Shown here piece by piece: positions 43,462-58,606 of a DNA stretch of 64,000 bases. Source of the DNA: a virus. Every line of letters begins with the position of its first letter. Within the stretch, counting starts at the first letter, position 1. The notes under the pieces were generated by a model, which was given only the letters and a program-made list of their open reading frames with translations, searched no databases and had not been told where the DNA came from. Made by a program: the position numbers and the translations under genes. Location of the stretch: the IMG/VR virus record IMGVR_UViG_3300045972_000140, positions 62,001 to 126,000 of that record. The stretch is one strand, 5' to 3'.

Positions 43462-43507
43462 AAATCTCCCGTTAAAACTATAGATAAATAGTGCAAACGG
43501 GAGATTT
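43462..43507 (+). promoter_or_regulatory. 12-bp perfect hairpin with late promoter in the loop, masking a ribosome site
   Basis: AAATCTCCCGTT (43462-43473) and AACGGGAGATTT (43496-43507) are perfect complements. The 22-base loop contains GATAAATA (43483-43490). The right arm contains GGGAG, the Shine-Dalgarno for ATG 43509. A T4-spaced start at 43496 gives an mRNA beginning exactly at the right arm, free to be translated. Confidence 0.85.
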
Positions 43508-43508
43508 C

Positions 43509-43868
43509 ATGGAAGAACGGCTACAACAAGCACTCGAGTTTGCTAACTACAGACAAACTCTTAATAATCAACTTAGAACAATTAAAATTAAGGCCGAAGG
43601 CCTTCTTATGTTCTCGGAGTCCGGTGGTACATTCAGTATCGATCAACAACTAATTTGTTTTTTAGATCTACTCGAACGAGAAGGACACACAACAGTTACA
43701 CTCCTGGATGATAATAAATCTCCAATTCAAATTACAGATGTTACTGATTTTAAGAAGCGAGTAATGGCAAGATACTTTGAAGTAACAAACGATTACTTCG
43801 GGGAAGCACAGGCAATTAAGAAATCGAGGACAGTAAAATCTATCCTTGATATTAAGGATATAGAATGA
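43509..43868 (+). CDS. Conserved small phage protein (119 aa)
   Basis: A 119-residue protein beginning MEERLQQALEFANYRQTLNNQ. Then come EGLLMFSESGGTFSIDQQLICFLDLLE and IQITDVTDFKKRVMARYFEVTNDYFGEAQAIKKSRTVKSI. I recall comparable proteins (N-Y-R-x-T-L, GG-x-F-x-I-D, Y-x-x-x-x-x-x-L/I-K-K-x-R) next to the fibre genes of T4-like cyanophages, function unknown. ATG 43509 is chosen because GGGAG lies 6 bases before it; an in-frame GTG 18 bases earlier lies in the hairpin loop. It precedes and overlaps (ATGA) the glycosyltransferase genes. Confidence 0.75.
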   Translation: MEERLQQALEFANYRQTLNNQLRTIKIKAEGLLMFSESGGTFSIDQQLICFLDLLEREGHTTVTLLDDNKSPIQITDVTDFKKRVMARYFEVTNDYFGEAQAIKKSRTVKSILDIKDIE

Positions 43869-44752
43869 CACGCGGAGTATTGATGTACGCACACAACAAT
43901 ACTGAAATTGATTATTTTAAGATTGCGTGTGCCAATGCATTATTAGTACAGAAGAATTTAAAAGTACCTGTAACACTAGTATCAGACGAAGGTACAGTGT
44001 CGTGGGGTAAGACAGCACTAGGTGAAGATTTTGTCAACCAGTGTTTTGAGCAGATTGTTATTGTAGATAGAGATTATACCTATTCGAATCCACGAAACTA
44101 TTCGGACACGTCCTTTTCAAGTAAACCTTTGCAGTTCTATAATTGCAAACATTGGCAAGCATATAAGTTGTCGCCGTACGACGAAACATTGTTTATTGAT
44201 TCGGATTACCTTATAATGAGCTCAGCGTTAAGCAATTGCTGGGGAAGTAATAAAGATATAATGATTAATAAGACAATAATTAATATCGTTGATACAAAGG
44301 ATTCGTATACTAAAACAATAGACGATTTTGGTATTGCACAGTACTGGGCAACTGTTGTATATTTTACTAAAAGTCCATTCTCTGAGCTGTTCTTTGACAT
44401 AATCGGTCATATAGAAAATAATTATTCTTATTTCAATCAGTTGTTTTATTTTACGAATCGCATGTTTAGAAATGATAATGCATTTAGTATTGCAGTCCAT
44501 ATGATGAATGGCTTCGTTGATTCCAGTGAAGTTGTATCTGAGCTACCTATTCCGGGTCTGTTTATGTCATGGGATAAGGATGATATTCTAGATATCAACG
44601 ATGTAAACGAAATAACAATCTACGCAGAAAAGCCAACAAAGGGTACTTATACGCTCGCTAGGTTAAAGAATCAAGATGTCCATGTTATGAATAAGTGGGC
44701 TATTAACAGATTTAGTGATAAGTTAATTAACTTATGCAAGGAAACAAAATGA
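43865..44752 (+). CDS. GT-A glycosyltransferase-like protein, tandem copy 1
   Basis: A 295-residue protein. The opening MTRGVLMYAHNNTEIDYFKIACANALLVQKNLKVPVTLVSDE is followed by SPYDETLFIDSDYLIM, where DSD (near residue 112) is the metal-binding DxD of GT-A glycosyltransferases. Overall layout resembles GT8-type enzymes that use a UDP-sugar. The acceptor is unknown. The ATG overlaps the stop of the preceding gene, and the stop overlaps the ATG of copy 2, so the two are translationally coupled. It opens a 14-kb accessory island. Confidence 0.75.
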   Translation: MTRGVLMYAHNNTEIDYFKIACANALLVQKNLKVPVTLVSDEGTVSWGKTALGEDFVNQCFEQIVIVDRDYTYSNPRNYSDTSFSSKPLQFYNCKHWQAYKLSPYDETLFIDSDYLIMSSALSNCWGSNKDIMINKTIINIVDTKDSYTKTIDDFGIAQYWATVVYFTKSPFSELFFDIIGHIENNYSYFNQLFYFTNRMFRNDNAFSIAVHMMNGFVDSSEVVSELPIPGLFMSWDKDDILDINDVNEITIYAEKPTKGTYTLARLKNQDVHVMNKWAINRFSDKLINLCKETK

Positions 44753-45606
44753 CACGCGGATATTTAATTTTAGCACAGAATACACGAAGCGAAAATTATC
44801 TACGTATGGCATATGCTCTTGCGTTAAGCATAAAGAATTCGCAGTCAACTGAACGTAATGTAACGCTCGCAACCGATAATACTGCTCTTGTACCAATTAA
44901 GTACGGGATGGTATTTGACAATATTGTTGAAATTCCGTGGACCGATGCAGCATCGTTATCTAAGTGGAAAATTGAAAATAAGTGGAAATATTATTATATG
45001 ACTCCTTATGATGAAACGATTATCTTAGATGCCGATATGGTCTTTTCTTCAGATATTAGCCACTGGTGGAACATTTTATCGCAACGTGATGTGTGGATTA
45101 CAGATAAGCCGCAGACATATCGCGGAGAAGTAATTACATCCGACAAGTACAGAAAAACATTCGTTGCAAACGAATTACCTAACGTTTACACTGCATTTAT
45201 GTATTTTAAGAAAAGCCAGTTGGCCGCAGATATCTTTAAAATGACTGGTTTAATATTCGACAATTGGGATAGATTTTTCTATACATACTTAGACGAAACA
45301 CGCCCTAAACATCTTTCGGGCGATGTTGCATTCGCATTGGCTATCAAGATTCTCGGCGTAGAAAACGAATGTTTTGGTAAGTTAGATAGTGTTCCGTCGT
45401 TTGTGCATATGAAAAGTGATTTACAAAATCTTAAGGAAGTAAATGCGTTCGAAGATTGGACTCAGCATATCCCTACTTACTTCAGGAACGATGGCGGATT
45501 TAAAATCGGCAACTACGAACAAACACTGCCATTTCACTATCATATTAAGGACTGGCTAACAGACGACATTGTTCGTATATTAGAAAAGAGGATGAGCGAA
45601 GTATGA
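44749..45606 (+). CDS. GT-A glycosyltransferase-like protein, tandem copy 2
   Basis: Paralogue of the preceding gene: same start (MTRGYLILAQNTRSENYLRMAYALALSIKNS) and the motif TPYDETIILDADMVFSSD with DAD as the DxD. At 285 residues it is slightly shorter. ATG 44749 is preferred (AAGGA 7 bases upstream and overlap with the previous stop) over an ATG 15 bases earlier. A His-rich C-terminal segment (PFHYHIKDW) could contribute to metal or substrate binding. Tandem duplication with divergence suggests distinct sugars or acceptors. Confidence 0.78.
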   Translation: MTRGYLILAQNTRSENYLRMAYALALSIKNSQSTERNVTLATDNTALVPIKYGMVFDNIVEIPWTDAASLSKWKIENKWKYYYMTPYDETIILDADMVFSSDISHWWNILSQRDVWITDKPQTYRGEVITSDKYRKTFVANELPNVYTAFMYFKKSQLAADIFKMTGLIFDNWDRFFYTYLDETRPKHLSGDVAFALAIKILGVENECFGKLDSVPSFVHMKSDLQNLKEVNAFEDWTQHIPTYFRNDGGFKIGNYEQTLPFHYHIKDWLTDDIVRILEKRMSEV

Positions 45607-46211
45607 ATCCACTAATTTTAATGTATGTGTATTTTGATACATCGGGCGATATTAAGGCTATATCACCCGATGTAATTTTGTCGTACGAAGGTGTATACCA
45701 ATCGGCAACATTCTCGTTAGCGCAAGTTTCTACATTTCTAGAAGGTAAAGCAAATACTTTTAACTATTTCATTAAGAAAGATGTTAAAGGTTTTTCAACC
45801 GAATATATAATTGCACCAAAGTCTAGTGTTCAGGTGAGTAATCTACGCACATTGGACAGTTATCTCGAAGATATCTCTAAGAACACCGATTTAGAAAATT
45901 CAATGATGTGTGTACATAACGATACATTAACAAAAGATATTACGATTATTATCAATCCAGAACTATATAGATTACAAGAAAGTGGCAACGACAGTGAAAA
46001 GAAATTTGTGGAATCGTTCTTAAATATAGGTAGAATTTCTTTATTCTTTACTAGAAAAAATGATCCTTATTATCTAAATTTTACACTAGATTTTACAGTA
46101 ACAGAATTGCATAAGGCAGGAACCCTGTGTGTAGAGCACAATTTAGATTTATCCGATACCAGCATATTTACACGTAAGATAACAAATGGATATAGATATA
46201 TCGAAAGGTAA
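45603..46211 (+). CDS. Hypothetical island protein (202 aa)
   Basis: Starts at ATG 45603, overlapping the previous stop. The N-terminus is hydrophobic and beta-like (LILMYVYFDTSGDIKAISPD). It continues with AQVSTFLEGKANTFNYFIKKD and ends with FTRKITNGYRYIER. No motif that I recognise, no Cys clusters and no membrane segment. Its place between glycosyltransferases suggests a structural or assembly role in the same process; no function is assigned. Confidence 0.65.
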   Translation: MNPLILMYVYFDTSGDIKAISPDVILSYEGVYQSATFSLAQVSTFLEGKANTFNYFIKKDVKGFSTEYIIAPKSSVQVSNLRTLDSYLEDISKNTDLENSMMCVHNDTLTKDITIIINPELYRLQESGNDSEKKFVESFLNIGRISLFFTRKNDPYYLNFTLDFTVTELHKAGTLCVEHNLDLSDTSIFTRKITNGYRYIER

Positions 46212-46213
46212 TT

Positions 46214-47215
46214 ATGGCATTTACAAACTTAAACTTATTTGATGTAATATTTATTAGTTACGACGAAGACAACTGTGAAGAAAATTGGGCAAACTTAGTT
46301 AATAAAGTGCCGTGGGCAAAACGTGTACATAAGGTCGAGGGCTCCGATGCTGCACATAAAGCTGCCGCCAATTTATCCGAAACCGATATGTTTATTTCTG
46401 TAGATGCAGATAATATAGTCGATCCTACATTCTTTGATATGGAATTAGATTTAGAGCATCCTAAGTTAGCAGGTAAGGCTATTAGCTGGTCTGCACAGAA
46501 TGCAATCAATGGGTTAGAGTATGGCAATGGTGGATTAAAGTTGTGGCCTAAATCTCATGTGTTAAACATGAAAACACACGAAGCATCTGAATCAGCAGAT
46601 AAAAGAGCACAGTTAGAATTTTGTTGGGATGACAACTATATTCAGATGACTAATCAGTATTGCACTACATTTCCTAATGGTAGTCCAAGACAAGCATTTC
46701 GCGCAGGCTTTAGGGAAGGTGTGAAGATGAGTTTAGACCAGGGTGGTAAAGTTGACCCATTAAAGTTCAAAGAAATCATTTGGTGGGGCAATTACAAACG
46801 CCTCATTACATGGTGTAGCGTTGGTGCAGATGTGACAAACGGACTATGGGCCATGTATGGCGCTCGCTTAGGTTGCCACATGACTAATCTTACAGAGTGG
46901 GATTATGTAAATGTTCGCGACTTCGAATATATCAATAAGTTTTGGGCAGATGTTGTTGTTCCCGATTTCCGTGCAACAATTGATTCGGTTAATGTTGATA
47001 AGTGCTACAAGACTAACTTCGTGTGGGACACGGATAAACTATCATCTGAAATTAGCAGACTAGGCGATGCATTAAGAAAAGGTTGCGGCATCGAAGTTGC
47101 AGAGCTAGACCCCATCCAGAGTAAGTTTTATAAATCAGCTATTATTCACGCACCGCGTATGAATAAAATGTTTACAGAAGATGAACTCAACGAATTACGA
47201 CGACTAAATAGATAA
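46214..47215 (+). CDS. Glycosyltransferase-like protein with DxD motif (333 aa)
   Basis: The N-terminus FDVIFISYDEDNCEENWANLVNKVPWAKRVHKVEGSDAAHKAAANL and FISVDADNIVD (DAD at residues 64-66) form the nucleotide-sugar-binding half of a GT-A fold. In this family the helix after VEGS carries the AHK.AA pattern. The C-terminal 180 residues (WWGNYKRLITWCSVGADVTNGLWAMYGARLG) are Trp-rich and may bind the acceptor. Similar proteins occur near structural genes of T4-like cyanophages, from memory. It precedes the first radical-SAM gene by 10 bases. Confidence 0.72.
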   Translation: MAFTNLNLFDVIFISYDEDNCEENWANLVNKVPWAKRVHKVEGSDAAHKAAANLSETDMFISVDADNIVDPTFFDMELDLEHPKLAGKAISWSAQNAINGLEYGNGGLKLWPKSHVLNMKTHEASESADKRAQLEFCWDDNYIQMTNQYCTTFPNGSPRQAFRAGFREGVKMSLDQGGKVDPLKFKEIIWWGNYKRLITWCSVGADVTNGLWAMYGARLGCHMTNLTEWDYVNVRDFEYINKFWADVVVPDFRATIDSVNVDKCYKTNFVWDTDKLSSEISRLGDALRKGCGIEVAELDPIQSKFYKSAIIHAPRMNKMFTEDELNELRRLNR

Positions 47216-47225
47216 AGGATATAAA

Positions 47226-48176
47226 TTGGAACACGCATATATTAAATTAGAACACCTTAACCCACGGCATGCCGATTGGGTAGTAATAAACTGGTGCATC
47301 GGGAATTTCTGTAACTACAGTTGCAGTTATTGCCCGAGTGGATTACACGACGGTTCGCGTATGTGGCCCGATAAAAATGCAGTAAAAGCGTTCATAAAGA
47401 ATGTGGCAGATCACTATAGTCCAAAGAAAGTCTATTTTGAATTTACCGGCGGCGAAGTAACCCTGTGGACACACTTTTCCGAGATATGCAGATATTGTGC
47501 AGAAATCGGGGTTAAGGTGGGTTGTATTTCTAATGCATCTCGTACACTACGCTGGTGGCAGGAAAATAAACAATTTATTGATCATGCATGTCTGAGTTTC
47601 CACCCAGAACACGCAAAACCCGACCATTTTATTAGTATTGTAAAAGAAGTACATCAGGATCTTCGAACACACGTTAATATAATGATGAGTCCCGAAAAAT
47701 TCGATTATTGTTTTGATGTTGCACAGAGAGTAGTCGAATTAGGTGATATCAGTATAGCATTGCAGCCACTGATACATGATTTTGGAGATACACTATTTGA
47801 CTATACAGATGAACAAAAGCATGTATTTGATCAACAGCACGAATTGTGTGTTAAGAAGATTAAGTATACAAAATCATTTGATTATTACCGCGGGGCAATG
47901 AAAAAAGTATTTGCCGATGGCGAAGAAGTACCAAGCAGTGCTCATAGATTCATAAGCGACAAAACAAATGACTGGTCCGGCTGGAAATGTTACTCTGGTG
48001 TTGAACAGTTAATAGTAGATATGGATGGTTCGATTTATCGTGGTTGGTGCAAAGTTGGCAACGAAATTGGTCATATAACAGACACAGTATTAGAGCTACC
48101 GACACAGCCAATTATTTGCAATAAAACAATGTGCCATTGTAATTTTGATATTATGTCAACGAAAGAACCAGTATAA
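47226..48176 (+). CDS. Radical SAM protein with C-terminal SPASM-like cysteines
   Basis: A 316-residue enzyme starting at TTG 47226 (AAAGGA lies 7 bases upstream). The radical-SAM motif CNYSCSYC gives C29, C33 and C36 for the 4Fe-4S cluster, followed by FEFTGGEVTLW (the GGE SAM-binding motif). The C-terminal part has WKCYSGVEQLIVDMDGSIYRGWC and CNKTMCHCNF, a SPASM/twitch-like set of Cys for an auxiliary cluster. Such enzymes often modify peptides or sugars. The substrate is unknown. The stop overlaps the next ATG (TAATG). Confidence 0.85.
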   Translation: MEHAYIKLEHLNPRHADWVVINWCIGNFCNYSCSYCPSGLHDGSRMWPDKNAVKAFIKNVADHYSPKKVYFEFTGGEVTLWTHFSEICRYCAEIGVKVGCISNASRTLRWWQENKQFIDHACLSFHPEHAKPDHFISIVKEVHQDLRTHVNIMMSPEKFDYCFDVAQRVVELGDISIALQPLIHDFGDTLFDYTDEQKHVFDQQHELCVKKIKYTKSFDYYRGAMKKVFADGEEVPSSAHRFISDKTNDWSGWKCYSGVEQLIVDMDGSIYRGWCKVGNEIGHITDTVLELPTQPIICNKTMCHCNFDIMSTKEPV

Positions 48177-49555
48177 TGGAACCACATGTCAACACCAATA
48201 AGCAATTCAGAATTTACGACGTAACCGGTAAATTTAACAGGTTCAGTGTTGACGAAGTTATTGCTAATAATTTCAATCGCTGGAATGGCTGGCAATGCAG
48301 TGCCGGTGTACGTGGATTATACATCGACTACGATGGTAATGTCTGGATAGGTAATTGTGCAAGTAGTAGCAGAAATAAAAATTCTCACTATGATAGCTGG
48401 CAAAATTTTATCGATTCGGAGTGGAAAAAAACACGAGATGCAATTTTTGGTCCTATACCACATAGAAAGTGGAGATCGCAGAATACGGGTAGAGATAATG
48501 TTGTCTTAGATGACACAGCAACAGAATGGGTCTTAACACAAGATGACTGGGATAATTCGGAAAAGATATTAACTGTAAAATTTAAAGAAGTAGAAACTGA
48601 ATTCTTTTCTACATTAGAAACAAAACTTAGAAAGAAATTTAATGCCAATGGATCAGGATTTCAATGGCAGGCAACACCCGACGACATAGGCAATGTATGG
48701 GGGCTATTAGGTAATATCTATAATACATGGTCTACAACAACAGAATGGACAGAATGTAAAATAGAAGCTTGCGGATGCGGGGCCGATGTAATACTGAGTA
48801 AGAGTAAAGATATAAAATCCAAAGATCATTTGCATGTAACAAAGTATAAGTACAACGGGCAATATGACAGTTTAAATCTACAATCTAATATATTATCTGA
48901 GCACGTTGCTGTAGAAATGGATTTTCCCATTGACTACCAGATATTATGGGATATTAGTAGGCGTTGTAATTTTTCGTGCTCGTATTGCTGGCCTAGTGTA
49001 CACAACAATACCGATCCGCACCACGACTGGGAAGTTATACAAGCAACCCTTTATAAGGCAATAAACGAATGGGCATATAATAATCCTATACGATGGAATT
49101 TTGGTGGCGGAGAACCCACATTACATCCAAAATTCCTAGATATTTTAAAGATACTAAAAGATAATAAACAATGGACTATGGTAACTACAAACGGTAGTCT
49201 AAAGTCTGCGTTTTGGCACAAGGCTAAAAAATTACTTAATTCTGTAAACTTTAGTTGTCATTTTGAAAAAGTTGACGAAGAACAATTTATAAATAACGTA
49301 AAAATAGTGCTGGACTGGCACGACGAGTGCAACGACGATCTCTGGTGCGAAATAAAATTAATGGCGCCACCAGGCGTAGTTAAACGAGCACTAGCAATGA
49401 AAGACATTATTAATTCATTAGAAACATTTAACCGCCCAGGTCTAAATGGAAGAAAAAAAGGTGCCATTAGTATAGTACCAATTCGAGGGCTAACAGACTC
49501 TAATGCACTTGTTGATTATACAGAAGAAGAACTTGAGATTTTACGCACACAATGA
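48176..49555 (+). CDS. Radical SAM protein with N-terminal SPASM-like domain (permuted order)
   Basis: A 459-residue protein. The first ~220 residues resemble the C-terminal part of the preceding gene: WNGWQCSAGVRGLYIDYDGNVWIGNC and later ACGCGADVILSKS. The radical-SAM core then follows, with C264, C268 and C271 in RRCNFSCSYCWPS and NFGGGEPTLHPKF. So the auxiliary-cluster region precedes the core, reversing the usual order. This could be a fusion of a SPASM-like module from one enzyme to the core of another. The stop overlaps the next ATG. Confidence 0.8.
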   Translation: MEPHVNTNKQFRIYDVTGKFNRFSVDEVIANNFNRWNGWQCSAGVRGLYIDYDGNVWIGNCASSSRNKNSHYDSWQNFIDSEWKKTRDAIFGPIPHRKWRSQNTGRDNVVLDDTATEWVLTQDDWDNSEKILTVKFKEVETEFFSTLETKLRKKFNANGSGFQWQATPDDIGNVWGLLGNIYNTWSTTTEWTECKIEACGCGADVILSKSKDIKSKDHLHVTKYKYNGQYDSLNLQSNILSEHVAVEMDFPIDYQILWDISRRCNFSCSYCWPSVHNNTDPHHDWEVIQATLYKAINEWAYNNPIRWNFGGGEPTLHPKFLDILKILKDNKQWTMVTTNGSLKSAFWHKAKKLLNSVNFSCHFEKVDEEQFINNVKIVLDWHDECNDDLWCEIKLMAPPGVVKRALAMKDIINSLETFNRPGLNGRKKGAISIVPIRGLTDSNALVDYTEEELEILRTQ

Positions 49556-50409
49556 TAACATTTGATAAAATAAAAAATAGTAATCCGTTGATATTAGTAT
49601 ACCCGGGAGGATCCGGCGGCGAATTTGTTACACAGACATTATCGGCAGCTAGTGAGTCATTCCACGCATTACCGTCGACATATGATGCATCGATAAATCG
49701 CATAGAATTATCATCGCCATTACGATTTCAATACCGCTGGCCGGATGTTAATAATCCCGAAACATGGGTAGATCCCGAGTTCATCGATACATCCGATGAT
49801 AACTTAAGATACATTATTAGATTGCATCCCGAAACAACAATAGTCCAAAAGTTAGGACAGCACCTACCTAACGCAGAAATATTGTATATGACTCCACTTG
49901 CAGAATGTGAATATTTCAGTAAGTTATTATTCTTAAAAACCGCATATAAATTAGAGATACCAACCACTCCAGCCGTTATACGTGCAGAAGTGGGTCCCGG
50001 ATTGAATGCATTTCAACTTTATAGAATAGTTAATTGGGTAAATGCACAGTCCGAAGTGTGGTCGCCCGAATTAGGGCACCTATCTTTCTTATTAAAAGAC
50101 GGACAAGATATAAACGATGTACCAAATGATGCTAATCCGTACTCACATATTAGGAAGTACAAATATAGCATGTATCAGCGTTATTATGAAACTTGTCAGT
50201 ACTTCGAAGATGTATTTGACGTGGTTCATAATATTAATTCAGATTCATTAACTACCGACGGAATAGAGTTTTGGTCCAGAATAAAAGAAATAGTACCTAA
50301 TTTAGATTTAGATTATGCAATATCTAAAACACGTGACTGGATTTCTAAAAACAATGCAATAATTAGTAATTTTGATAATGAAAATAACGTTCAACGAAAT
50401 AAAAAATAG
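49552..50409 (+). CDS. P-loop sulfotransferase-like protein, tandem copy 1
   Basis: A 285-residue protein with an N-terminal nucleotide-binding loop LVYPGGSGGEFVTQTL (Gly-rich, after a hydrophobic strand), then FHALPS and a segment ILYMTPLAECEYFSKLLFLKTAY. The C-terminus holds NSDSLTTDGIEFW and a final helix. The layout is like phage sulfotransferase-type P-loop proteins, which would move sulfate from PAPS to a sugar or tyrosine. The PAPS-binding Arg/Ser are not obvious, so the activity is tentative. ATG overlaps the previous stop (ATGA). Confidence 0.55.
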   Translation: MITFDKIKNSNPLILVYPGGSGGEFVTQTLSAASESFHALPSTYDASINRIELSSPLRFQYRWPDVNNPETWVDPEFIDTSDDNLRYIIRLHPETTIVQKLGQHLPNAEILYMTPLAECEYFSKLLFLKTAYKLEIPTTPAVIRAEVGPGLNAFQLYRIVNWVNAQSEVWSPELGHLSFLLKDGQDINDVPNDANPYSHIRKYKYSMYQRYYETCQYFEDVFDVVHNINSDSLTTDGIEFWSRIKEIVPNLDLDYAISKTRDWISKNNAIISNFDNENNVQRNKK

Positions 50410-51208
50410 TAACCCATTACTCATTATGTATTCTGCAGGCGTTGGTGGCGAATTTGTAACAGCAACATTATCAAACGCAAGCAAACAATTTCATACATCG
50501 CCACACAGGATTATTGCCGAAAGAAATAGATTTGCTACAAGATGTCCTATTGACTATTTTACAAACTGGAGCAATCCGGATGACCCAGATACTTGGATCA
50601 ATCCAATTTTTGAAAAAACAGAAAACAACGTTCGTTACCTACTCAAAGATCATCCTATGTGTTATTTGCCTAAGTTTTACAAGCGTCATATGCCCGGTGT
50701 ATCTATTATATATATGGCCCCGTTTACGGAATCTAATTACTTCAGTAAACTGCTATTTTTAAAAACTGCGACGAAAATCACTACTCCCATCGACGGCAAC
50801 TTTATTCTTACTAATGTTAATCGTAATATTCCAGTCGGTCGTCTTCAACATATAGTAAATTGGGCTAATAGACACCCCGAAGTATGGAAGCACGAGTTAA
50901 ACAGTGTCAATACTGTTTTGAGCAATGGCGGCGACATTAATAATATATTGCACCAGCCAAATTTACATAAATATATAGTAGAGCATCAATCGGTTATACA
51001 GAATGATATAGATAGTGTCTTTCCGATTGTAAAAAAGAATATCAGTAATGCAACTTTAATAAATTCGGATTCATTGACCGTAGATGGAACAGAATTCTGG
51101 AAGTCTATAAAATTAATAGTAGGCGATTTAGACTTAGATACAGCAATAACTAACACCCGTGATTGGGTTCGAAACAACAAAGAATTAATTAATAATTATG
51201 AACGATAA
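50378..51208 (+). CDS. P-loop sulfotransferase-like protein, tandem copy 2
   Basis: A paralogue of the preceding gene with the same order of motifs: NEIKNSNPLLIMYSAGVGGEFVTATL, IYMAPFTESNYFSKLLFLKTAT, and INSDSLTVDGTEFW. ATG 50378 is chosen; a TTG 6 bases earlier is the alternative. The gene overlaps copy 1 by 32 bases and the next gene by 11. Copies 1 and 2 differ widely outside the motifs, so the duplication is not recent. Substrate unknown. Confidence 0.6.
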   Translation: MKITFNEIKNSNPLLIMYSAGVGGEFVTATLSNASKQFHTSPHRIIAERNRFATRCPIDYFTNWSNPDDPDTWINPIFEKTENNVRYLLKDHPMCYLPKFYKRHMPGVSIIYMAPFTESNYFSKLLFLKTATKITTPIDGNFILTNVNRNIPVGRLQHIVNWANRHPEVWKHELNSVNTVLSNGGDINNILHQPNLHKYIVEHQSVIQNDIDSVFPIVKKNISNATLINSDSLTVDGTEFWKSIKLIVGDLDLDTAITNTRDWVRNNKELINNYER

Positions 51209-52835
51209 ATTTGATTTAACTATTCCAAGATCCAATGATGATCGTGTCCTACTGGCATTAGATAAAGATTGTCCAGTTGACGTACTATATACAATGGCAA
51301 GATACGATACCGAAAGAGATGTAATGCTTGCGGTTGCATATAATGCAAATGTAACTCCCGAAATTATAAATGTTGTATTGGCAAAGTTGTCAATGACTGC
51401 TGAAGAACTTCAAGTAAAGATTGAACAATATAGGAAAGAAAACGTAATGAACGGTTTGCGGAGTACATTTTGTCCTATACCGTGGAATCATGTGAGTACT
51501 AACCCCGAAGGAACAGTACGGGCATGTTGCCAAATATTAGATACCAATCAATACGGTACAGCCAATATTGTAAAGGACGACGGCACTACATTAACCGGCG
51601 CTGATGATTTAACCCAGCACCGAAATGCACCTTTATGGAAATCATTGAGAAGTCAATTCATAAAAGGTGAAAAACCAGAATTATGTAAACTATGCTGGGA
51701 CGAGGAATCTAACGGTGTTAATAGTCATAGACAACGAACCTCAAAACTATTTCCTGCAATAATATCTAATGCTGTAAAAAATACAAATCTCGACGGTACT
51801 ATCAAACACATCGATTTTCCTATAGAGTATTGGGATTTACGTTTCGGGAATAATTGTAATCTAAAATGCAGAACGTGTAGCCCGGTTTCGAGCAATAGTT
51901 GGTACAATGATTATATTGCTCTTGCATCTGAAGAAAAGTTAGTCGAAACATTTAAACCGTATATTACTATCGAAAAAATGGATAACGGCAAAACTAAGAT
52001 TACCGATACATATAATTGGTACGACGATAGCAAGATGTGGCAAACTATTATCGACGGTCTCGATCATACTACTAGATTCTATTTCACAGGCGGCGAGCCG
52101 ACTATAAATCAAAAGCATAAAGAACTTCTAAAAATAATTATAGACAGGGGATTGGCTAAAAATATCAACCTAGACTATAATACAAATGTTGCAGGCATTC
52201 CTAGCGACATGTTTAATTTATGGGCTAATTTTAAAACTGTGAATCTCGGAATGAGTGTCGACGGAATTTATGAACATTTTGAATATATTAGAAACCCGGG
52301 TAAATGGTCTGCTGCTGAACGTACATTGCAGAAGATAGATTCTGCACACAATCTAACAAACATAACTGCTGCCTTTTCTGTAACAGTTAGTACATTAAAT
52401 GTTTTACACATATTAGATATGCAATGGTGGATGAAAGAACAAAATTGGAAACGAATTATTCCTGCGTTAACACTACATACATTATATAAGCCGTACATGT
52501 ACAATATTCAATATCTCCCCGAAGAGATGAAGTTTTACATTACAAAACGATACACACAATTTATAAACGATATTGTAAGATGTTTCCCGGACGATGTTGC
52601 GTTTATTTCGGTTGTTAGAAAGCAGTGCTCGTCGGTAATAAATTATATGAATGCAGAGACACATGCAAGGCATACATGGAATGAGTTTGTTGAGTTTTCG
52701 GACAGGTTAGACGTTATTCGTGGCGAGAGTTGGAGAGAAAGTTTATCAGAACTCGTAACTCTAGAAGAATATTTTCATACTACTCGTAAACAAGCCCCTA
52801 TTATTAAATTACAGGCTACCGAAAAGAAAATATGA
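51198..52835 (+). CDS. Twitch-domain radical SAM protein (N_twi_rSAM type)
   Basis: A 545-residue protein. An N-terminal region of unknown function (residues 1-90, with helical repeats like CPVDVLYTMARYDTERDVMLAVAYNANVTPEIINVVLAKL) precedes FCPIPWNHVSTNPEGTVRACC and CKLCWDEE, a twitch-type auxiliary cluster before the core. The radical-SAM core has C220, C224 and C227 (NNCNLKCRTCSP), then YFTGGEPTINQKH. This architecture matches the N-terminal-twitch radical SAM family known in phages. Substrate unknown. The ATG lies inside the preceding gene and the stop overlaps the next ATG. Confidence 0.82.
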   Translation: MNDKFDLTIPRSNDDRVLLALDKDCPVDVLYTMARYDTERDVMLAVAYNANVTPEIINVVLAKLSMTAEELQVKIEQYRKENVMNGLRSTFCPIPWNHVSTNPEGTVRACCQILDTNQYGTANIVKDDGTTLTGADDLTQHRNAPLWKSLRSQFIKGEKPELCKLCWDEESNGVNSHRQRTSKLFPAIISNAVKNTNLDGTIKHIDFPIEYWDLRFGNNCNLKCRTCSPVSSNSWYNDYIALASEEKLVETFKPYITIEKMDNGKTKITDTYNWYDDSKMWQTIIDGLDHTTRFYFTGGEPTINQKHKELLKIIIDRGLAKNINLDYNTNVAGIPSDMFNLWANFKTVNLGMSVDGIYEHFEYIRNPGKWSAAERTLQKIDSAHNLTNITAAFSVTVSTLNVLHILDMQWWMKEQNWKRIIPALTLHTLYKPYMYNIQYLPEEMKFYITKRYTQFINDIVRCFPDDVAFISVVRKQCSSVINYMNAETHARHTWNEFVEFSDRLDVIRGESWRESLSELVTLEEYFHTTRKQAPIIKLQATEKKI

Positions 52836-54880
52836 AAGATGAACCAATAGTATTTAATAGCAGCGACCGTGATCAAGTTCTGTTGACGATGATAGAACAT
52901 GATTCCGTTAGGCACGCTAATTCCCACTTAGGTGATTCATCTGTTAAAAAAAGAGCATACACCTACAAAAGCGAAATACATCATCCTCGTGGGTACAAAT
53001 ACTACTCTGAGTTTCGTCCGTTCAGTGTTAACCGAGATAGTATAAGTTTAGTAATGGCCCCTGCCTGGGGAGTTATCTTTCCTCCGTATAATATTGCTAG
53101 GCTATCAGCAATGATACGTAAGCATGGTTATACTGTCAATGTTCACGACGTTAATATTGATTGTTATAATTATGTAATGGACAATAACGGAATTGATTAT
53201 TGGGACGGGGTATATTACTACGCTTGGTTGCTTCCTAAGTTTGAAACCGTAATATTACCTGCCATAAAAAGTGTACTTGATACCGCAGTTGACAATATTT
53301 TGGCCGATAATACTGATATTATTGGTTTTAGTATATATAATACTAATTTAATGGCAACATTATATATGATCAAGCAAATTCGGGAAAAGAAGCCTGCTGT
53401 TACTATAGTAGTCGGCGGCCCCGAAGCATTTGACGATGAGCTTCCCGATAGATTAAGGAATCGTCATCATGTACCAGATGGATCAATTAATTATAGAATT
53501 AAAGGTGAAGGTGAACATGAAATTTTATTGCTATTAGAGAAATTCAGGGATCTGCCAAAGAATCGGGATTTAGTAGTATTCGGCGAACTAAACAGTCGAT
53601 TAAATTTAAATGAGTTACCGTTTCCCGATTATACCGACTACGATTTGTCGTTATACAAGCAACCAGACGGTGTTAGTATCGAGACAAGCAGAGGATGTAT
53701 TGCACAGTGTAGTTTTTGTTCCGAGACATGGTTCTGGAAATTCAGATGGAGGACGTCCGATAGGATAGTTGCAGAAATGCAATACCAAATTGAAACATAT
53801 AACATTAACAGATTTTGGTTTGTTGATAGTCTAGTAAACGGTAACCTTAAAGAATTTAGCAGACTTGTTGATTTGATTTTAGAAAAACAACTCAATATTA
53901 GATGGAACAGTTATGCAAGATGCGACGGTCGAATGGATTTAGATTTTTTTGATAGAATTGCAAAAAGTGGATGTATGGCACTTAGTTTCGGAGTCGAATC
54001 AGGAAGCAAGGTTGTACTAGATGCAATGAAGAAGAAAATCGAAGTTAAGGAAATAGAAGATAATTTGCGCGATGGACATCTAGTTGGGTTAAAGAATCAT
54101 GTAAACTGGTTAGTAGGATTTCCACAAGAAGGTCCTGCAGAATTCTTGCATAGCTTACACGTACTACATAATTGCAGAAAATGGATGTATGTCATTAGTC
54201 CCGGCTTCACGTGCGGTGATGCTGCATTTTCTGATATGCATATAAATTGGAAGGACTACGATATTGCATGGGTTAACAAGCCGCTTGACAATACATTCTT
54301 AGATACATGGTATACAACTGGTTACAAGAACACAATGGTACATCGGTTTATTCGTTTAAAATTTATGCAAATATGGCTAAAATTAGCAACGACCGCCGGC
54401 GAGGGTACAGTCATCAATACACAGGCCTCGCCGGGCCTTAGTTCGTTATATACTATTAATTTATTAGATAAATCACACGGTATTGTAGACTACTTACCGC
54501 AACAGCATAATCAACAATTTGATTATTTTAGCGGTACCACACCTCAAGCACAACTAGCTGCGTCTCTTGCCAACGAATTCTTACCGTATGCTTGGATCAC
54601 ATATAACGTGTACGGTGGATTTGAAATGTCCATAGAATTTGATTTTGAAAAGGATCTTATAGAATTTAATAATACTATTGTTCGCGAATACTATGCAACA
54701 GTGAATATTAAGGTATCTAACGCCGGTCAACTAGAATTTAATGTAACACATAGATTTAATCACGGTAAGACACATGATTACAAACACGCAGACATTACAA
54801 AAGTAATCCCAATTGATATGTCATTTACGGAAACTATTCATAGTGTTATTTGCCCGATTAGTATATTTGACGGAGTATAA
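52832..54880 (+). CDS. B12-binding-type radical SAM protein
   Basis: A 682-residue protein. After an N-terminal region, residues ~70-220 resemble a cobalamin-binding Rossmann domain (MAPAWGVIFPPYNIARLSAMIRKHGYTVNVHDVNID, IIGFSIYNTNLMATLYMIKQIRE, IVVGGPEAF), but without an obvious DxHxxG. The radical-SAM core follows: TSRGCIAQCSFCSE (C289, C293, C296), and LSFGVESGSKVVLDAMKKK, typical of B12-radical-SAM methyltransferase-like enzymes. The C-terminal ~200 residues are unassigned. Methylation or another radical transformation of a sugar or peptide is possible. The ATG overlaps the previous stop. Confidence 0.82.
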   Translation: MKDEPIVFNSSDRDQVLLTMIEHDSVRHANSHLGDSSVKKRAYTYKSEIHHPRGYKYYSEFRPFSVNRDSISLVMAPAWGVIFPPYNIARLSAMIRKHGYTVNVHDVNIDCYNYVMDNNGIDYWDGVYYYAWLLPKFETVILPAIKSVLDTAVDNILADNTDIIGFSIYNTNLMATLYMIKQIREKKPAVTIVVGGPEAFDDELPDRLRNRHHVPDGSINYRIKGEGEHEILLLLEKFRDLPKNRDLVVFGELNSRLNLNELPFPDYTDYDLSLYKQPDGVSIETSRGCIAQCSFCSETWFWKFRWRTSDRIVAEMQYQIETYNINRFWFVDSLVNGNLKEFSRLVDLILEKQLNIRWNSYARCDGRMDLDFFDRIAKSGCMALSFGVESGSKVVLDAMKKKIEVKEIEDNLRDGHLVGLKNHVNWLVGFPQEGPAEFLHSLHVLHNCRKWMYVISPGFTCGDAAFSDMHINWKDYDIAWVNKPLDNTFLDTWYTTGYKNTMVHRFIRLKFMQIWLKLATTAGEGTVINTQASPGLSSLYTINLLDKSHGIVDYLPQQHNQQFDYFSGTTPQAQLAASLANEFLPYAWITYNVYGGFEMSIEFDFEKDLIEFNNTIVREYYATVNIKVSNAGQLEFNVTHRFNHGKTHDYKHADITKVIPIDMSFTETIHSVICPISIFDGV

Positions 54881-54885
54881 GTATA

Positions 54886-55617
54886 ATGGCACAATTTATT
54901 GTAATTTTAAGTCAGCATAGATCGGGATCTAACTATCTAAGTGATATTCTTAGGGCAAATTTTGATATTCGGTCCATGTTTGAGTTATATAACAATAACA
55001 GTGATTTATCAAATTTAGATACACTATCTACATCAGAGCGCGTCGAATTAAAGAAGATACTTATTAACGAAAATGCGTCTGATAATGAATTATCAAAATA
55101 TATAGAGGATAATCCAGAACAATTGTTTGATGCTATTGATAAATTAGTTACCGGTGTAATATCTTTTAAAATTTTAGCAACTCATTTGTTAAATGGCCGC
55201 CTTGACTGGGTTTTTACAAAACCTAATTGTAATTTTATATTGTTGACAAGAACATCAACTATCGAAATGTTTATTAGTTTACAGCTTGCGTTGATGCAGG
55301 ATAAATGGGAAAGCACTGATACAAGCGATAAGAAAATATCAATAGACCCTGTAAATTTTATTAAGTTCAAGCATAACACAACGTACTGCAATAATTTATT
55401 TAGATACCATATACACAAGAAAGAATATCTACCACTAGTCTATGAAGAGTTGTCAAGTAGTAAGGATGCAATTAAGAAGTGGGCCAATAAATTAAATATT
55501 ATGCTACCAGAAAAAACTCGGCCCGAATCTCTATTTTTTAAAAAACAACAGAAGTCCTTGCCGAGCGATATTATTATAAACTACAGCGATATTGTAAAAT
55601 ATATAGATAATTTTTAA
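54886..55617 (+). CDS. Sulfotransferase family protein (243 aa)
   Basis: The N-terminal loop ILSQHRSGSNYLSDIL (residues 7-22) fits the R-S-G-[ST] phosphosulfate-binding loop of sulfotransferases. Later, FKILATHLLNGRLDWVF and ILLTRTSTIEMFISLQLA supply the [ILV]-x-R-x-[ST] 3'-phosphate-binding motif. Both elements agree with use of PAPS. The sulfate acceptor is unknown, likely a carbohydrate. It is the last gene of the plus-strand island and ends in a 4-base overlap with the convergent minus-strand operon. Confidence 0.75.
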   Translation: MAQFIVILSQHRSGSNYLSDILRANFDIRSMFELYNNNSDLSNLDTLSTSERVELKKILINENASDNELSKYIEDNPEQLFDAIDKLVTGVISFKILATHLLNGRLDWVFTKPNCNFILLTRTSTIEMFISLQLALMQDKWESTDTSDKKISIDPVNFIKFKHNTTYCNNLFRYHIHKKEYLPLVYEELSSSKDAIKKWANKLNIMLPEKTRPESLFFKKQQKSLPSDIIINYSDIVKYIDNF

Positions 55618-56234
55618 TTATTTAGGCCACTCACTCTCCTGACAGTATAATCAAGATCTTGTGTATTGCACGCTGTAAAATATTTGCTATTAGAATTATT
55701 TTTTAAAATATCTTCTACTTTTAAATTATCGTCGCTAACCGGAAACTGTAGTAAAGACGATAGGCTCTGTAGGTAAGGCATTCGATATAGGTATATTAGT
55801 TCCTGGCTAATGTAGATCGGATTGAGGCCAGATAAATACGGTAGTTGTGATTCGAAGTCACATAGACTTATTCTACCACGAACACGTGACTGTTGATGTT
55901 CTAATATATTTCTGTCTCTTCCGACAATTGCGAACTTTGTATTATACCCTAAGCTATTCGCCGAATCTATAAACGATTTATAATCCGGTATAACAGTCTG
56001 CCCTTTATATGCGTACGGTGCGCTTATACTTGTTACAGCAAAGTTATCAAAATGTATATCTTTAAGTAATGTAGGTTCGTGCCATGCATTAGCAAATGGT
56101 TCTTTATCGTGGCCTATCCAGTATTCTTGCAGTAGTTCACTCCACCCAAAAACATCTGGATGAAGTGAAAATAATTTACTAAACAGATGATTGCCCGACC
56201 CTTGCGGGCCGGTAACTATCAACAATGTCTTCAC
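55614..56234 (-). CDS. P-loop sulfotransferase-like protein (206 aa)
   Basis: Begins with LLIVTGPQGSGNHLFSKLFSLHPDVFGW, a Gly-rich P-loop followed by a helix, as in sulfotransferases. AIVGRDRNILEHQQSRVR then supplies a basic strand like the second PAPS motif. The C-terminus is a short helical region. It is the last gene of the minus-strand operon that starts with tctA. The ATG overlaps the preceding oxygenase gene's stop. Kinase-type P-loop is the alternative. Confidence 0.6.
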   Translation of the reverse strand: MKTLLIVTGPQGSGNHLFSKLFSLHPDVFGWSELLQEYWIGHDKEPFANAWHEPTLLKDIHFDNFAVTSISAPYAYKGQTVIPDYKSFIDSANSLGYNTKFAIVGRDRNILEHQQSRVRGRISLCDFESQLPYLSGLNPIYISQELIYLYRMPYLQSLSSLLQFPVSDDNLKVEDILKNNSNSKYFTACNTQDLDYTVRRVSGLNN

Positions 56235-56911
56235 AATTTAAAGGATGTTGTATTCTTTAGTTTTAACAGGAACTCTTCTGTTGCCGGAGTTCTGTTACCT
56301 GTGATTTGCAATGTCACTCGTGGATCGTAACCTGCATTAGCTGTGCTGTGCGGGATGTTTTGCCAATCGAATGTAACGCAATCACCAGCAGCCCAACGGT
56401 TGTGATGGAAGTTACCGTATTCCCAAAACTGTCCTGGCTTCCAATCTGTCAACTGAATGAAGATACGGATAATCTTAGTAGGGTCTTCGGGGTTCCACTT
56501 TTGCAGTTTGTCGATATGCAAGTTCCACATCTCGCCTGGCATCTGTACGTGAATGCGGTTCATTGTCTTTTCCAATGCAAACGCATCAGAAATGTCCAGT
56601 AAGCATTGTGGGATCTTCCAGTTCAAATGGGACACAGTAAACTTTGGGTCGTATCCTGCACGTTCCAAATCGGCTTCTTCTTTTTCTAGTTCTTCGGGTG
56701 GAGCTTCAATGCCCTCACCTTTGTAACCACGGGTAGCCCAGTTTGCAGGACGAGAGTTTTTAACAATGTCTGCAATTTCGTTTGCCCATACATTTTCGAA
56801 CTTACCCAGTCCCACAGCCATGTCCCAACGCGCATCTATTTTTGTTGGGTCGAAGTGGTACGCGCTCTTGGCTTTAGTTTCGTCCCATGACGATAGTTTT
56901 GTCGTTGTCAT
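56231..56911 (-). CDS. 2-oxoglutarate/Fe(II)-dependent oxygenase (aspartyl hydroxylase-like)
   Basis: A 226-residue protein. The double-stranded beta-helix iron triad is visible as H132-x-D134 (WNLHIDKLQKW) and H188 (NIPHSTANAG), with R198 as the likely 2-oxoglutarate anchor. Between them lies FIQLTDWKPGQFWEYG and WAAGDCVTFDW. It would hydroxylate a protein side chain or small molecule using oxygen and 2-oxoglutarate. Such enzymes are frequent in T4-like cyanophages. It lies between two P-loop genes in the tctA operon, joined by short overlaps. Confidence 0.85.
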   Translation of the reverse strand: MTTTKLSSWDETKAKSAYHFDPTKIDARWDMAVGLGKFENVWANEIADIVKNSRPANWATRGYKGEGIEAPPEELEKEEADLERAGYDPKFTVSHLNWKIPQCLLDISDAFALEKTMNRIHVQMPGEMWNLHIDKLQKWNPEDPTKIIRIFIQLTDWKPGQFWEYGNFHHNRWAAGDCVTFDWQNIPHSTANAGYDPRVTLQITGNRTPATEEFLLKLKNTTSFKL

Positions 56912-57546
56912 ATTAAATTTACCTTTACATCTGATGTTTCATAATGCTGCCTATATTCAGCCGGGGGATATGTGATGCCTAATGCATCACACAGTTGGAG
57001 GTTAGTACGAATGTCCGTGTGCTCAAACACAAAATGTTTGCGTTCAGCTTCTAAAATTCCTGCGTTTTGTTGTGATATAATCTTGCCCATCTCGCGCAAG
57101 TTTACATAGTATTTATGGTACAGTGGGTAAGTTATCGCAAAGTGACCACACTTCACCCACCAGCCCAAACATTGGTCATCGTCCCTGTACACTAATACGA
57201 TAGGACACTCGGGCCATGTTTTCTTAATGAAGTCAATGTGATTAGCAAAGCAATGAGACTTGATGATGCGTACACCGGTCCCAGAGAATGGGCGATCAAA
57301 TTCTGCCTCGCACTCTTCTTTAGTAAACAAATTAAGTCTATCAAAAAAAGACCCAAACTCCATCCCTGGGTCAAAATACGCCCCCATATGCAGCAATTCC
57401 ATTTTGCCTGTTGCATCGTGCGAGTATAATCGCTCTTCGCTATAATCAGTATTGTCTATGTCCCTGGAATAGTAGATGTTTTTGCTTACGCTACTCCATC
57501 TACTTCCAGGAGCGCCTATAATGAAAATGTACTTATAGACGGGCAT
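56908..57546 (-). CDS. P-loop sulfotransferase-like protein (212 aa)
   Basis: The N-terminal strand-loop IFIIGAPGSRWSSVSKNI (residues 7-24) is of P-loop type. VRIIKSHCFANHIDFIKKTWPECPIVLVYRDDDQCLGWWVKCGHF follows, where VYRDD corresponds to the second cofactor motif. The presence of an AAxxHxxS-like KSHCF region is typical of phage sulfotransferase-like proteins. Substrate unknown. The ATG lies 1 base after the tctC stop. Confidence 0.6.
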   Translation of the reverse strand: MPVYKYIFIIGAPGSRWSSVSKNIYYSRDIDNTDYSEERLYSHDATGKMELLHMGAYFDPGMEFGSFFDRLNLFTKEECEAEFDRPFSGTGVRIIKSHCFANHIDFIKKTWPECPIVLVYRDDDQCLGWWVKCGHFAITYPLYHKYYVNLREMGKIISQQNAGILEAERKHFVFEHTDIRTNLQLCDALGITYPPAEYRQHYETSDVKVNLI

Positions 57547-57547: not shown

Positions 57548-58606
57548 TTAGTGCGCTACCTTGGCGATATTGTCTTTGTAGATCGCTTCTTGGTTCAGCA
57601 CAGTAGAAATCCACCATACTAAATCTTTCAGCGCCTTGCGTGTAGTTAACGCTTCCAATGCCTTGTGTGCTTTTGCAACGTCGTTGCCAATGAACCATTT
57701 GTATTTGCCAGTTTCCTTTTCGATGATAGCAAGCGATACTGGATCAGCTAATGTTTCACGTAATGCCTTACGCAATACTTCCCTGTTAGGATTACCGTGG
57801 TCAACATACAATGCCTTTTGCAATACATCACGGTAGTTCTTAATAAGCACCCATGTATCGTATAAATCGCCAGACGGTGCCTCGCCCCACTTCTTTTGGT
57901 ACACAGCACGGAAGTCAACTCCTGGGAAGTTAGGGTCAACTGCAATTTTACCAGTCTTCAAATCCAAAACACCTGGATCAAACCAGTCTACGTTTTGTGG
58001 CATAGGACGAATGTTTTTCAAATACGCAGACGGTGTCTCACGAATTGCGTTAACTTCGCCGCGCAGGTATGACAGTTTACGCTCGTTGCCTGTCATACCG
58101 CGCACATATTTGAAATGTTCGTTATAACATGCTGCATATTGCTGCATTGTTTTCCCGGGACCACACACAAGTAATGTCATTGCAATAATGTCCGGATTTG
58201 TACCTGATGCTGCTGGAAACTTAACTACATCCTTAAACGGATCTGAATCATTGCGACGTCCTACCATAATTGTTAAATTTTGTAATCCGATTGGATCGTA
58301 CAGGGCGTAGTCGTAATCTACGGTTTGATACAGAAAAGATTCTGCGTTGCCTCCGTGTGCAACCATAACCGTCTTTGGGTCTTTGCGTAGTGAGTTATGG
58401 AATTTGTTGAAGCCCGGAATATCGTTTGCTCCCGGAATATTTTCTACTACAATTTTTTCGCCTAATTTCTTTTCCATTTCTCGTGCAACAATACGTGCCC
58501 AAATATCTGTTCCGTTGCCGGGTTCCTGTGGTACAATGAACCTGTAATCTGCATGAGCAATTGCCGCTGTGCTGACGAGTAGTGTTATTAAAAGTTTCTT
58601 AAACAT
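57548..58606 (-). CDS. tctC: Tripartite tricarboxylate transporter substrate-binding protein TctC
   Basis: A periplasmic binding protein of the TctC/Bug family, which captures carboxylates such as citrate for the TctAB permease. The N-terminal signal peptide MFKKLLITLLVSTAAIAHA with cleavage before DYRF is clear. The mature part begins with RFIVPQEPGNGTDIWARIVAREMEKKLGEKIVVENIPGA, the hallmark strand-loop-helix of the family (P.GG..D..AR.....L). At 352 residues it is slightly longer than usual (~320). ATG 58606 is chosen for its signal peptide; longer upstream frames lie inside tctA. It overlaps tctA by 8 bases. A phage copy suggests altering host uptake during infection. Confidence 0.9.
   Translation of the reverse strand: MFKKLLITLLVSTAAIAHADYRFIVPQEPGNGTDIWARIVAREMEKKLGEKIVVENIPGANDIPGFNKFHNSLRKDPKTVMVAHGGNAESFLYQTVDYDYALYDPIGLQNLTIMVGRRNDSDPFKDVVKFPAASGTNPDIIAMTLLVCGPGKTMQQYAACYNEHFKYVRGMTGNERKLSYLRGEVNAIRETPSAYLKNIRPMPQNVDWFDPGVLDLKTGKIAVDPNFPGVDFRAVYQKKWGEAPSGDLYDTWVLIKNYRDVLQKALYVDHGNPNREVLRKALRETLADPVSLAIIEKETGKYKWFIGNDVAKAHKALEALTTRKALKDLVWWISTVLNQEAIYKDNIAKVAH

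What the first reader, a model, noticed from the sequence alone, without database searches (positions are those of the whole stretch)
43865..57546. Accessory island of glycosyltransferases, radical-SAM enzymes, sulfotransferase-like proteins and an oxygenase
A tightly overlapping run combines three GT-A-like proteins, four radical-SAM enzymes, five P-loop sulfotransferase-like proteins, one 2-oxoglutarate oxygenase and one unknown. Most junctions are ATGA or TAATG overlaps, implying stoichiometric coupling. This is what one would expect of a pathway that builds or decorates a surface polymer or a virion glycan. I know of no described system with this set.
Basis: inference. Interest (0 to 1): 0.85.

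Follow-up and report, generated by a model that had tools for sequence, protein, structure and literature searches.

The report
Tail-fibre glycan block with swappable radical-SAM cargo
At the end of its tail-fibre genes, this uncultivated large T4-like phage carries a fixed five-gene block with three sugar-transfer enzymes, found at the same place in many environmental phages, followed by an interchangeable set of radical-SAM enzymes; together they probably build and chemically decorate a glycan on the virus or its host, but no product has been shown.

Summary
The plus-strand unit runs 43491-55617 and continues the tail-fibre operon. ST4, the putative oxygenase and ST5 lie on the minus strand, behind a TctA-TctC transporter pair, and meet the first unit tail to tail at 55614-55617.

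The plus unit has two layers.
- Block A (43491-47215: small protein, GT1, GT2, unknown, GT3) is fixed. It fills the same slots in 96 of 117 related viral loci. The gene before it is, in 91 of 98 cases, homologous to the window's last fibre gene, which is related to PA5oct gp360, a protein detected by mass spectrometry.
- Cargo B (47226-54880: four radical-SAM genes and a duplicated P-loop-like gene) keeps its order in many contigs but is swappable. A relative with a 95% identical capsid protein has other genes in the same slot.

So the genes are neither scattered nor one fixed set. Only one 'sulfotransferase' has fair support. Fibre regions rich in rSAM and glycosyltransferase genes are already described in T4-like phages; the fixed block, the slot and a Bdellovibrionota counterpart appear new. 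Best reading: virion (fibre) glycan synthesis and decoration; a host surface glycan is the main rival.

The parts
42555..43457 (+). last fibre-operon gene (probable distal tail/adhesin protein), immediately upstream of the block
   Evidence: 24% identity, E=1e-7 to PA5oct gp360, annotated as detected by mass spectrometry; collinear with gp353-gp360; homologous gene upstream of the block in 91 of 98 loci
43491..43868 (+). block A gene 1: small conserved protein (TFA125; probable start ATG 43509), function unknown
   Evidence: 28-member alignment; starts the block in nearly all relatives
43865..44752 (+). block A gene 2: GT1, GT8-like glycosyltransferase, paralogue of GT2
   Evidence: GT1/GT2 E=6.5e-15; invariant D112/D114; only weak direct match to glycogenin, E about 1
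44749..45606 (+). block A gene 3: GT2, glycogenin/GT8-like glycosyltransferase
   Evidence: profile vs glycogenin E=2.9e-8
45603..46211 (+). block A gene 4: UNK, beta-rich protein of unrecognised fold
   Evidence: AlphaFold mean pLDDT 90, pTM 0.58; no PDB match at E <= 0.001; only uncharacterised phage relatives in BFVD
46214..47215 (+). block A gene 5: GT3, GT-A glycosyltransferase
   Evidence: AlphaFold pLDDT 88.6; Foldseek PDB best 2p6w/2p73, PBCV-1 capsid glycosyltransferase, E=5.5e-4; invariant D64-x-D66
47226..48176 (+). cargo: RS1, radical SAM with C-terminal Cys domain
   Evidence: PF04055 39.3 bits (cut-off 29.5); CNYSCSYC
48176..49555 (+). cargo: RS2, radical SAM with N-terminal Cys domain related to the C-terminal domain of RS1
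   Evidence: PF04055 45.3 bits; domain match E=1.5e-6
49552..50409 (+). cargo: PL1, GxGGE P-loop-like protein
   Evidence: 41% identical to PL2; no Pfam/PDB family
50378..51208 (+). cargo: PL2, tandem paralogue of PL1; a single homologue sits between RS2 and RS3 in several relatives
51198..52835 (+). cargo: RS3, twitch-domain radical SAM protein (NF033640)
   Evidence: 344 bits vs cut-off 170
52832..54880 (+). cargo: RS4, B12-binding radical SAM protein
   Evidence: PF04055 57.5 and PF02310 39.6 bits, both above cut-off
54886..55617 (+). ST3, probable sulfotransferase; last gene of the plus unit
   Evidence: Sulfotransfer_3 E=1.1e-4; family profile vs LPS sulfotransferase NodH 1e-5
55614..56234 (-). 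ST4, nucleotide-binding-like protein (by eye) of the convergent minus unit
   Evidence: no family hit
56231..56911 (-). OX, putative 2-oxoglutarate/Fe(II) oxygenase of the minus unit
   Evidence: H132-x-D, H188, R198; Asp_Arg_Hydrox E=0.09
56908..57546 (-). ST5, weakly sulfotransferase-like protein of the minus unit
   Evidence: Sulfotransfer_3 E=0.014
57548..60047 (-). TctC-like and TctA transporter genes heading the minus unit
   Evidence: TctA E=1.1e-84, TctC E=2e-4; TctA also in 6 of 15 related phage records

Best explanation
Block A is a glycosylation module tied to the tail-fibre operon: GT1, GT2 and GT3 build a short glycan on the distal fibre/adhesin protein, or on a neighbouring virion protein, during assembly, with the small protein and UNK acting as adaptors, chaperones or acceptors. 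The slot behind GT3 holds interchangeable enzymes. Here these are RS1-RS2-PL1/PL2-RS3-RS4 plus a probable sulfotransferase; they would alter the sugar (or the carrier) by radical chemistry, methylation and sulfation, so that each phage makes its own version. Shown: gene families, order, coupling, conservation of block A, swapping of the cargo, position after fibre genes, sugar-nucleotide genes in the same or related phages. Inferred: the substrate, the virion as target, every reaction, and late expression.
For: Block A follows the fibre genes on the same strand in 98 of 98 loci, and the upstream gene is homologous in 91 of 98. That gene is related to PA5oct gp360, listed there with mass-spectrometry support, and the baseplate-to-fibre order is collinear; PA5oct has no block there and its fibre operon simply ends. 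Within block A, junctions are within 10 bp in almost all relatives and TFA, GT1 and GT3 distances correlate at r = 0.90-0.91. GT3 has a GT-A fold, nearest solved structure the PBCV-1 capsid glycosyltransferase. In L059, with a 95% identical capsid protein, block A is kept at 34-69% identity, like the fibre genes (45-71%), while the slot up to the shared 60917-61291 gene holds other genes: an rSAM, methyltransferase-like genes and a sugar-nucleotide-dehydrogenase-like gene, the last two kinds named by eye. The same record holds a second cluster of five rSAMs, a second GT3-type gene (41%), a sulfotransferase-like gene and a sugar-nucleotide epimerase/dehydratase. Relative L002 carries a cytidylyltransferase and a carbamoyltransferase behind its cargo.
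Against: No biochemical, proteomic or glycan data exist for this phage. GT8-like and GT-A enzymes also make host LPS. Some cellular GT3 relatives sit beside apparently ordinary glycan-type glycosyltransferases in Rhodobacterales and Photorhabdus (families judged by eye). 18 of 56 GT3 loci have no rSAM within 6 kb, so block A works without the cargo. The Foldseek match of GT3 is limited (TM 0.24/0.35). Consensus late-promoter motifs are not enriched in the window.
Confidence: 0.45

Rival explanations
1. The block and cargo change the host's own surface glycan (O-chain or capsule) during infection, for instance to stop other phages from adsorbing or to ease release of progeny.
For: This is the interpretation published for glycosyltransferases in the host-recognition region of T4-like pelagimyophages (PMC7029224). 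Families fit: GT2 is GT8-like, the ST3 family matches an LPS sulfotransferase, sugar-nucleotide genes are in the same record. Cellular GT3 homologues lie near other glycosyltransferases.
Against: The block continues the fibre operon, and its strict coupling to fibre genes is not needed for host modification; superinfection exclusion would be expected early rather than with late genes (timing itself untested).
Confidence: 0.3
2. The rSAM enzymes act on protein rather than sugar: the cargo is a RiPP-like maturation line (cross-links, epimerisation, C-methylation) for a fibre or other structural protein, with the glycosyltransferases adding sugars to the same protein.
For: The best NCBIfam similarity of RS4 is to RiPP C-methyltransferases (TIGR03975 109 bits; ApyD 104 bits); RS1-RS3 carry extra Cys clusters of the SPASM/twitch type; GT3's fold neighbours include the peptide S-glycosyltransferases ThuS and SunS.
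Against: All RiPP models are far below their curated cut-offs; no precursor peptide was looked for or found; rSAM proteins have many other substrates.
Confidence: 0.12
3. The genes are general auxiliary metabolism (cofactor or small-molecule synthesis) that sits behind the fibre genes only because that region accepts cargo.
For: The same neighbourhood recruits clearly metabolic genes such as TctA-TctC; the cargo is swapped wholesale; the rSAM cassette of L038 is not next to block A.
Against: Glycan-type genes recur in the window, L002 and L059 neighbourhoods; block A is kept whatever the cargo.
Confidence: 0.08
4. DNA hypermodification: the glycosyltransferases and rSAMs modify phage DNA.
For: T4-like phages are known to glucosylate DNA (own knowledge); a thymidylate-synthase-family gene exists in related records G001 and G014.
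Against: No such gene in the window's record or in most relatives searched, though records are partial; the genes are in the fibre operon and resemble glycogenin and a capsid glycosyltransferase.
Confidence: 0.05

Closest known systems
Host recognition cluster of T4-like pelagimyophages (PMC7029224)
   Same: Large variable region next to tail-fibre genes of marine T4-like phages, with glycosyltransferases (GT8 most common) and radical-SAM gene cassettes that come and go.
   Different: That paper describes a hypervariable, non-syntenic island; here part of it is a strictly ordered five-gene block with a defined cargo slot, found across many contigs and in a jumbo-type relative.
T4-like marine virus TARA_ERS488813_N000010 with 12 radical-SAM genes (PMC5332604)
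   Same: T4-like environmental phage rich in radical-SAM genes, like G000 (9), G010 (15) and G005 (14) here.
   Different: There the genes were counted as Fe-S related; no glycosyltransferase block or gene order was described in the passages read.
Campylobacter phages CP220/CPt10 (PMC2853527)
   Same: 11-12 radical-SAM genes, with an interchangeable module carrying five of them.
   Different: Only a 29% match of RS2 over 118 residues; no GT1 or GT3 found.
Mycobacteriophage virion glycosylation (Freeman et al. 2023, as cited in PMC12619734)
   Same: Phage glycosylation of capsid and tail-tube proteins.
   Different: Different host group; no sequence comparison was made here.
PBCV-1 capsid glycosyltransferase (PDB 2p6w/2p73)
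   Same: GT-A fold; a viral enzyme described as involved in glycosylation of a capsid protein; best solved-structure match of GT3.
   Different: 14% identity over part of the domain, TM 0.24/0.35; eukaryotic virus; shared fold, not shown shared function.
Pseudomonas phage PA5oct (Arenbergviridae)
   Same: Capsid protein 78% identical; collinear baseplate-to-fibre genes.
   Different: No block A or rSAM cargo at this place: the fibre operon ends at gp360.

Membership tests
Radical SAM superfamily (PF04055) - RS1, RS2, RS3, RS4 | Score above the curated cut-off and CxxxCxxC cluster motif | tested here: met
   39.3, 45.3, 31.6, 57.5 bits vs 29.5; motif in all four
Twitch-domain radical SAM (NF033640) - RS3 | Score above 170 bits over the whole model | tested here: met
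   344.1 bits, positions 2-394 of 398
B12-dependent radical SAM - RS4 | B12-binding domain (PF02310) plus radical SAM domain | tested here: met
   39.6 bits vs 32.1, and 57.5 vs 29.5
RiPP maturation rSAM C-methyltransferase (TIGR03975) - RS4 | Score above 281.85 bits | tested here: not met
   109.3 bits
SPASM proteins (PF13186) - RS1, RS2, RS3 | SPASM domain above curated cut-off | tested here: not met
   Only RS3 has a hit, 18.2 bits vs 21.5; extra Cys clusters are present
GT-A glycosyltransferases - GT3 | GT-A fold and DxD motif | tested here: met
   Foldseek best hits are GT-A enzymes, prob 1.00; invariant D64-x-D66 in 25 sequences
GT8 (glycogenin-like) - GT2, GT1 | Significant match to a GT8 enzyme | tested here: inconclusive
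   GT2 profile vs glycogenin 2.9e-8; GT1 about 1 but a paralogue of GT2; no Pfam hit
Sulfotransferases - ST3 | Curated cut-off of Sulfotransfer_3 (27 bits) | tested here: inconclusive
   23.0 bits, E=1.1e-4; family profile vs NodH 1e-5
Sulfotransferases - PL1, PL2 | Any match to a sulfotransferase family or structure | tested here: not met
   None in Pfam or PDB with an 11-member family
2-oxoglutarate/Fe(II) oxygenases - OX | HxD...H metal triad and 2OG-binding Arg plus family match | tested here: inconclusive
   Residues present; Asp_Arg_Hydrox E=0.09, below cut-off
Pelagimyophage host recognition cluster (PMC7029224) | Lies after the VrlC-type gene among fibre genes of a T4-like phage, with glycosyltransferases | tested here: inconclusive
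   Large gene 30498-39476, homologous to PA5oct gp355, precedes the fibre genes; identity with VrlC itself and the gp14 boundary were not tested
Phage virion glycosylation systems | Glycan on a virion protein that depends on the phage glycosyltransferase | not testable with these tools
   No wet-lab data

The most novel reading that the evidence does not exclude
A phage-encoded maturation line glycosylates the distal tail fibre and then remodels that glycan or protein with a series of radical-SAM enzymes (including a B12-dependent one), giving each phage a private, exchangeable chemical coat; Bdellovibrionota carry a related GT3-radical-SAM cluster on their chromosomes.
Probability: 0.2. Interest if true: 0.85.

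Novelty: new variant of a known kind. Interest (0 to 1): 0.62.

Why it matters
Many phages carry orphan glycosyltransferases and radical-SAM genes whose substrates are unknown. A block fixed to the fibre operon narrows the question to one testable target, the virion fibre, and the cargo slot gives natural 'with' and 'without' comparisons between close relatives. GT1, GT3 and the small protein gave no tblastn match in 50,697 phage records, yet at least 530 IMG/VR stretches encode GT3 relatives, so the block is common in nature and unstudied. If radical-SAM enzymes act on virion glycans or proteins, that would be a kind of viral surface chemistry that the papers found here do not describe.

Tried and rejected
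The B12-rSAM alone found only one viral relative; two-member alignments of RS1 and GT3 found many. Iterated profiles for PL2 and the rSAM families drifted into one another and were replaced by profiles from fixed alignments. The late-promoter motif TATAAATA is not enriched in the window (7 found, 11.7 expected), so it was not used as proof of late expression. UNK gave no fold match in PDB; a chaperone role from its position is only a guess. The Fe-S carrier family PF01521, which was reported with rSAM-rich phages, is absent from this record and from most relatives (2 of 16). DNA modification was considered and disfavoured. A literature search for the full set of terms returned nothing.
Full report
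WHAT THE WINDOW IS. The window is bases 62001-126000 of a 126,686-base linear IMG/VR virus record. It is a T4-like contractile-tail phage: sheath, major head protein, portal, SbcC/D and tail lysozyme are recognised. The head protein is 78% identical to that of Pseudomonas phage PA5oct, a 287-kb phage of Arenbergviridae, and 95% identical to that of a 362,810-base viral contig, G001/L059. The record is therefore probably a fragment of a jumbo phage; this is inference.

TWO UNITS, NOT ONE. The plus-strand unit runs from 43491 to 55617 with overlaps or gaps of at most 10 bases. The last three 'island' genes (ST4, OX, ST5) are on the minus strand; they follow TctC and TctA, which start at 60047, and the two units meet tail to tail at 55614-55617. 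The gap between TctA and the next plus gene carries TATAAATA on both strands (60109 plus, 60154 minus). That is suggestive of late promoters but seen after the fact, and the motif is not enriched overall.

GENE IDENTITIES. RS1-RS4 are genuine radical-SAM proteins; RS3 belongs to the twitch-domain family NF033640 (344 bits, cut-off 170), and RS4 has a B12-binding domain. The C-terminal Cys domain of RS1 and the N-terminal one of RS2 are related (E=1.5e-6), as are their cores. GT3 was modelled with a 25-sequence alignment (pLDDT 88.6); its best solved match is the PBCV-1 capsid glycosyltransferase (E=5.5e-4), though the alignment covers only part of the protein. GT2 matches glycogenin and GT1 is its paralogue. 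UNK gives a confident but unrecognised beta-rich model. PL1 and PL2 are tandem duplicates (41%) of a family with a GxGGE loop and a DH pair, without any sulfotransferase match. ST3 is the only sulfotransferase candidate with fair support.

BLOCK A IS FIXED. Together with the rSAM scan, 117 loci, known duplicates removed, have GT3 above threshold: 60 show exactly TFA125-GT1-GT2-UNK-GT3; 24 more have a different gene in the GT2 slot, 7 a diverged UNK, and 5 one extra gene before GT3. Many of the rest are cut by contig ends. Since only the best-scoring GT3 relatives were kept, these counts describe close relatives, and near-identical contigs are included. The upstream gene is on the same strand in 98 of 98 loci and linked by transitive BLAST to the window's 42555-43457 gene in 91. 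That gene is related to PA5oct gp360, and the gene order from baseplate to fibre is collinear with PA5oct, whose record notes mass-spectrometry detection for gp360; in PA5oct the operon ends there. No relative of GT1, GT3 or the small protein was found in 50,697 phage records by tblastn.

THE CARGO SLOT. The RS1 scan did not use any glycosyltransferase, yet 32 of 33 loci with an RS1 orthologue (window included) have the GT3 block upstream. Of the 30 with enough sequence downstream, 27 have RS2, and 26 of those have RS3; 21 have RS4 (counted from the listing). A single PL2-like gene sits between RS2 and RS3 in several, and a fifth rSAM between RS3 and RS4 in many. In L038 the rSAM cassette is elsewhere, without block A within the 10 kb held. 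In L059, the closest relative by capsid protein, upstream fibre genes, block A and downstream genes (61752: 89%, 62315: 65%, 60917: 35%) are collinear, but the slot holds five other genes, among them one rSAM, and by eye two methyltransferase-like genes and a sugar-nucleotide-dehydrogenase-like gene. Distances in 16 dereplicated loci correlate strongly inside block A (TFA, GT1, GT3: r 0.90-0.91) and between RS3 and RS4 (0.91), but only 0.34-0.68 between block A and cargo genes. So the two layers are partly independent. From the GT3 scan alone, 38 of 56 loci over 12 kb have at least one rSAM within 6 kb, and 18 have none.

SECOND CLUSTER AND CELLULAR COUNTERPART. Bases 978-9867 of the same record (outside the window) carry five more rSAMs, a second GT3-type gene (41% identical), a sulfotransferase-like gene related to ST3 (28%, E=9e-14) and a sugar-nucleotide epimerase/dehydratase. 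GT3 relatives without block A occur on contigs labelled Bdellovibrionota, next to RS2-, RS3- and RS5-type rSAMs (L143, L150, L155, L163, L170), and alone in Rhodobacterales. The labels are those of assembled genomes, and some loci with block A in the same set are evidently phage contigs binned with bacteria.

ACCESSORY GENES. TctA occurs in 6 of 15 related records, roughly 3 to 12 kb from rSAM genes. OX- and ST5-like genes recur near the cargo in a minority. They are recurrent but not fixed.

INTERPRETATION. The anatomy points to synthesis of a glycan tied to the fibre operon, with variable decoration. Virion rather than host is favoured by position, coupling and divergence at the pace of the fibre genes, but not proved. 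Published work on T4-like pelagimyophages suggests host O-chain modification instead (PMC7029224). rSAM-rich phages are known (PMC2853527; PMC5332604). The points that appear new are the invariant block, the slot with alternative cargo, the ordered rSAM cassette and the chromosomal counterpart.

Noticed in passing
L003:978-9867 (record bases outside the window): Second cluster in the same phage: five radical-SAM genes, a second GT3-type glycosyltransferase, a sulfotransferase-like gene and a sugar-nucleotide epimerase/dehydratase.
   Followed up: partly
57548-60047: TctC-like and TctA transporter genes in a phage; TctA is also in 6 of 15 related phage records, near their radical-SAM genes.
   Followed up: partly
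60109-60116 (+) and 60154-60161 (-): Two T4-late-promoter-like TATAAATA motifs facing apart in the gap between TctA and the gene at 60182.
   Followed up: no
2801-3475 (-): A glycosyltransferase-like ORF (by eye, VDDDDY motif) directly behind the major capsid gene 3556-4728; might concern the capsid.
   Followed up: no
L143, L150, L155, L163, L170: Contigs labelled Bdellovibrionota with GT3-type glycosyltransferases beside RS2-, RS3- and RS5-type radical-SAM genes and no phage block A.
   Followed up: partly
L009 record (G010, 92 kb) and L038 record (G005, 158 kb): 15 and 14 radical-SAM matches in single phage contigs, the highest counts seen here.
   Followed up: no
47226-49555: RS1 ends and RS2 begins with related Cys-rich domains, suggesting a duplicated or shared auxiliary-cluster module.
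   Followed up: partly
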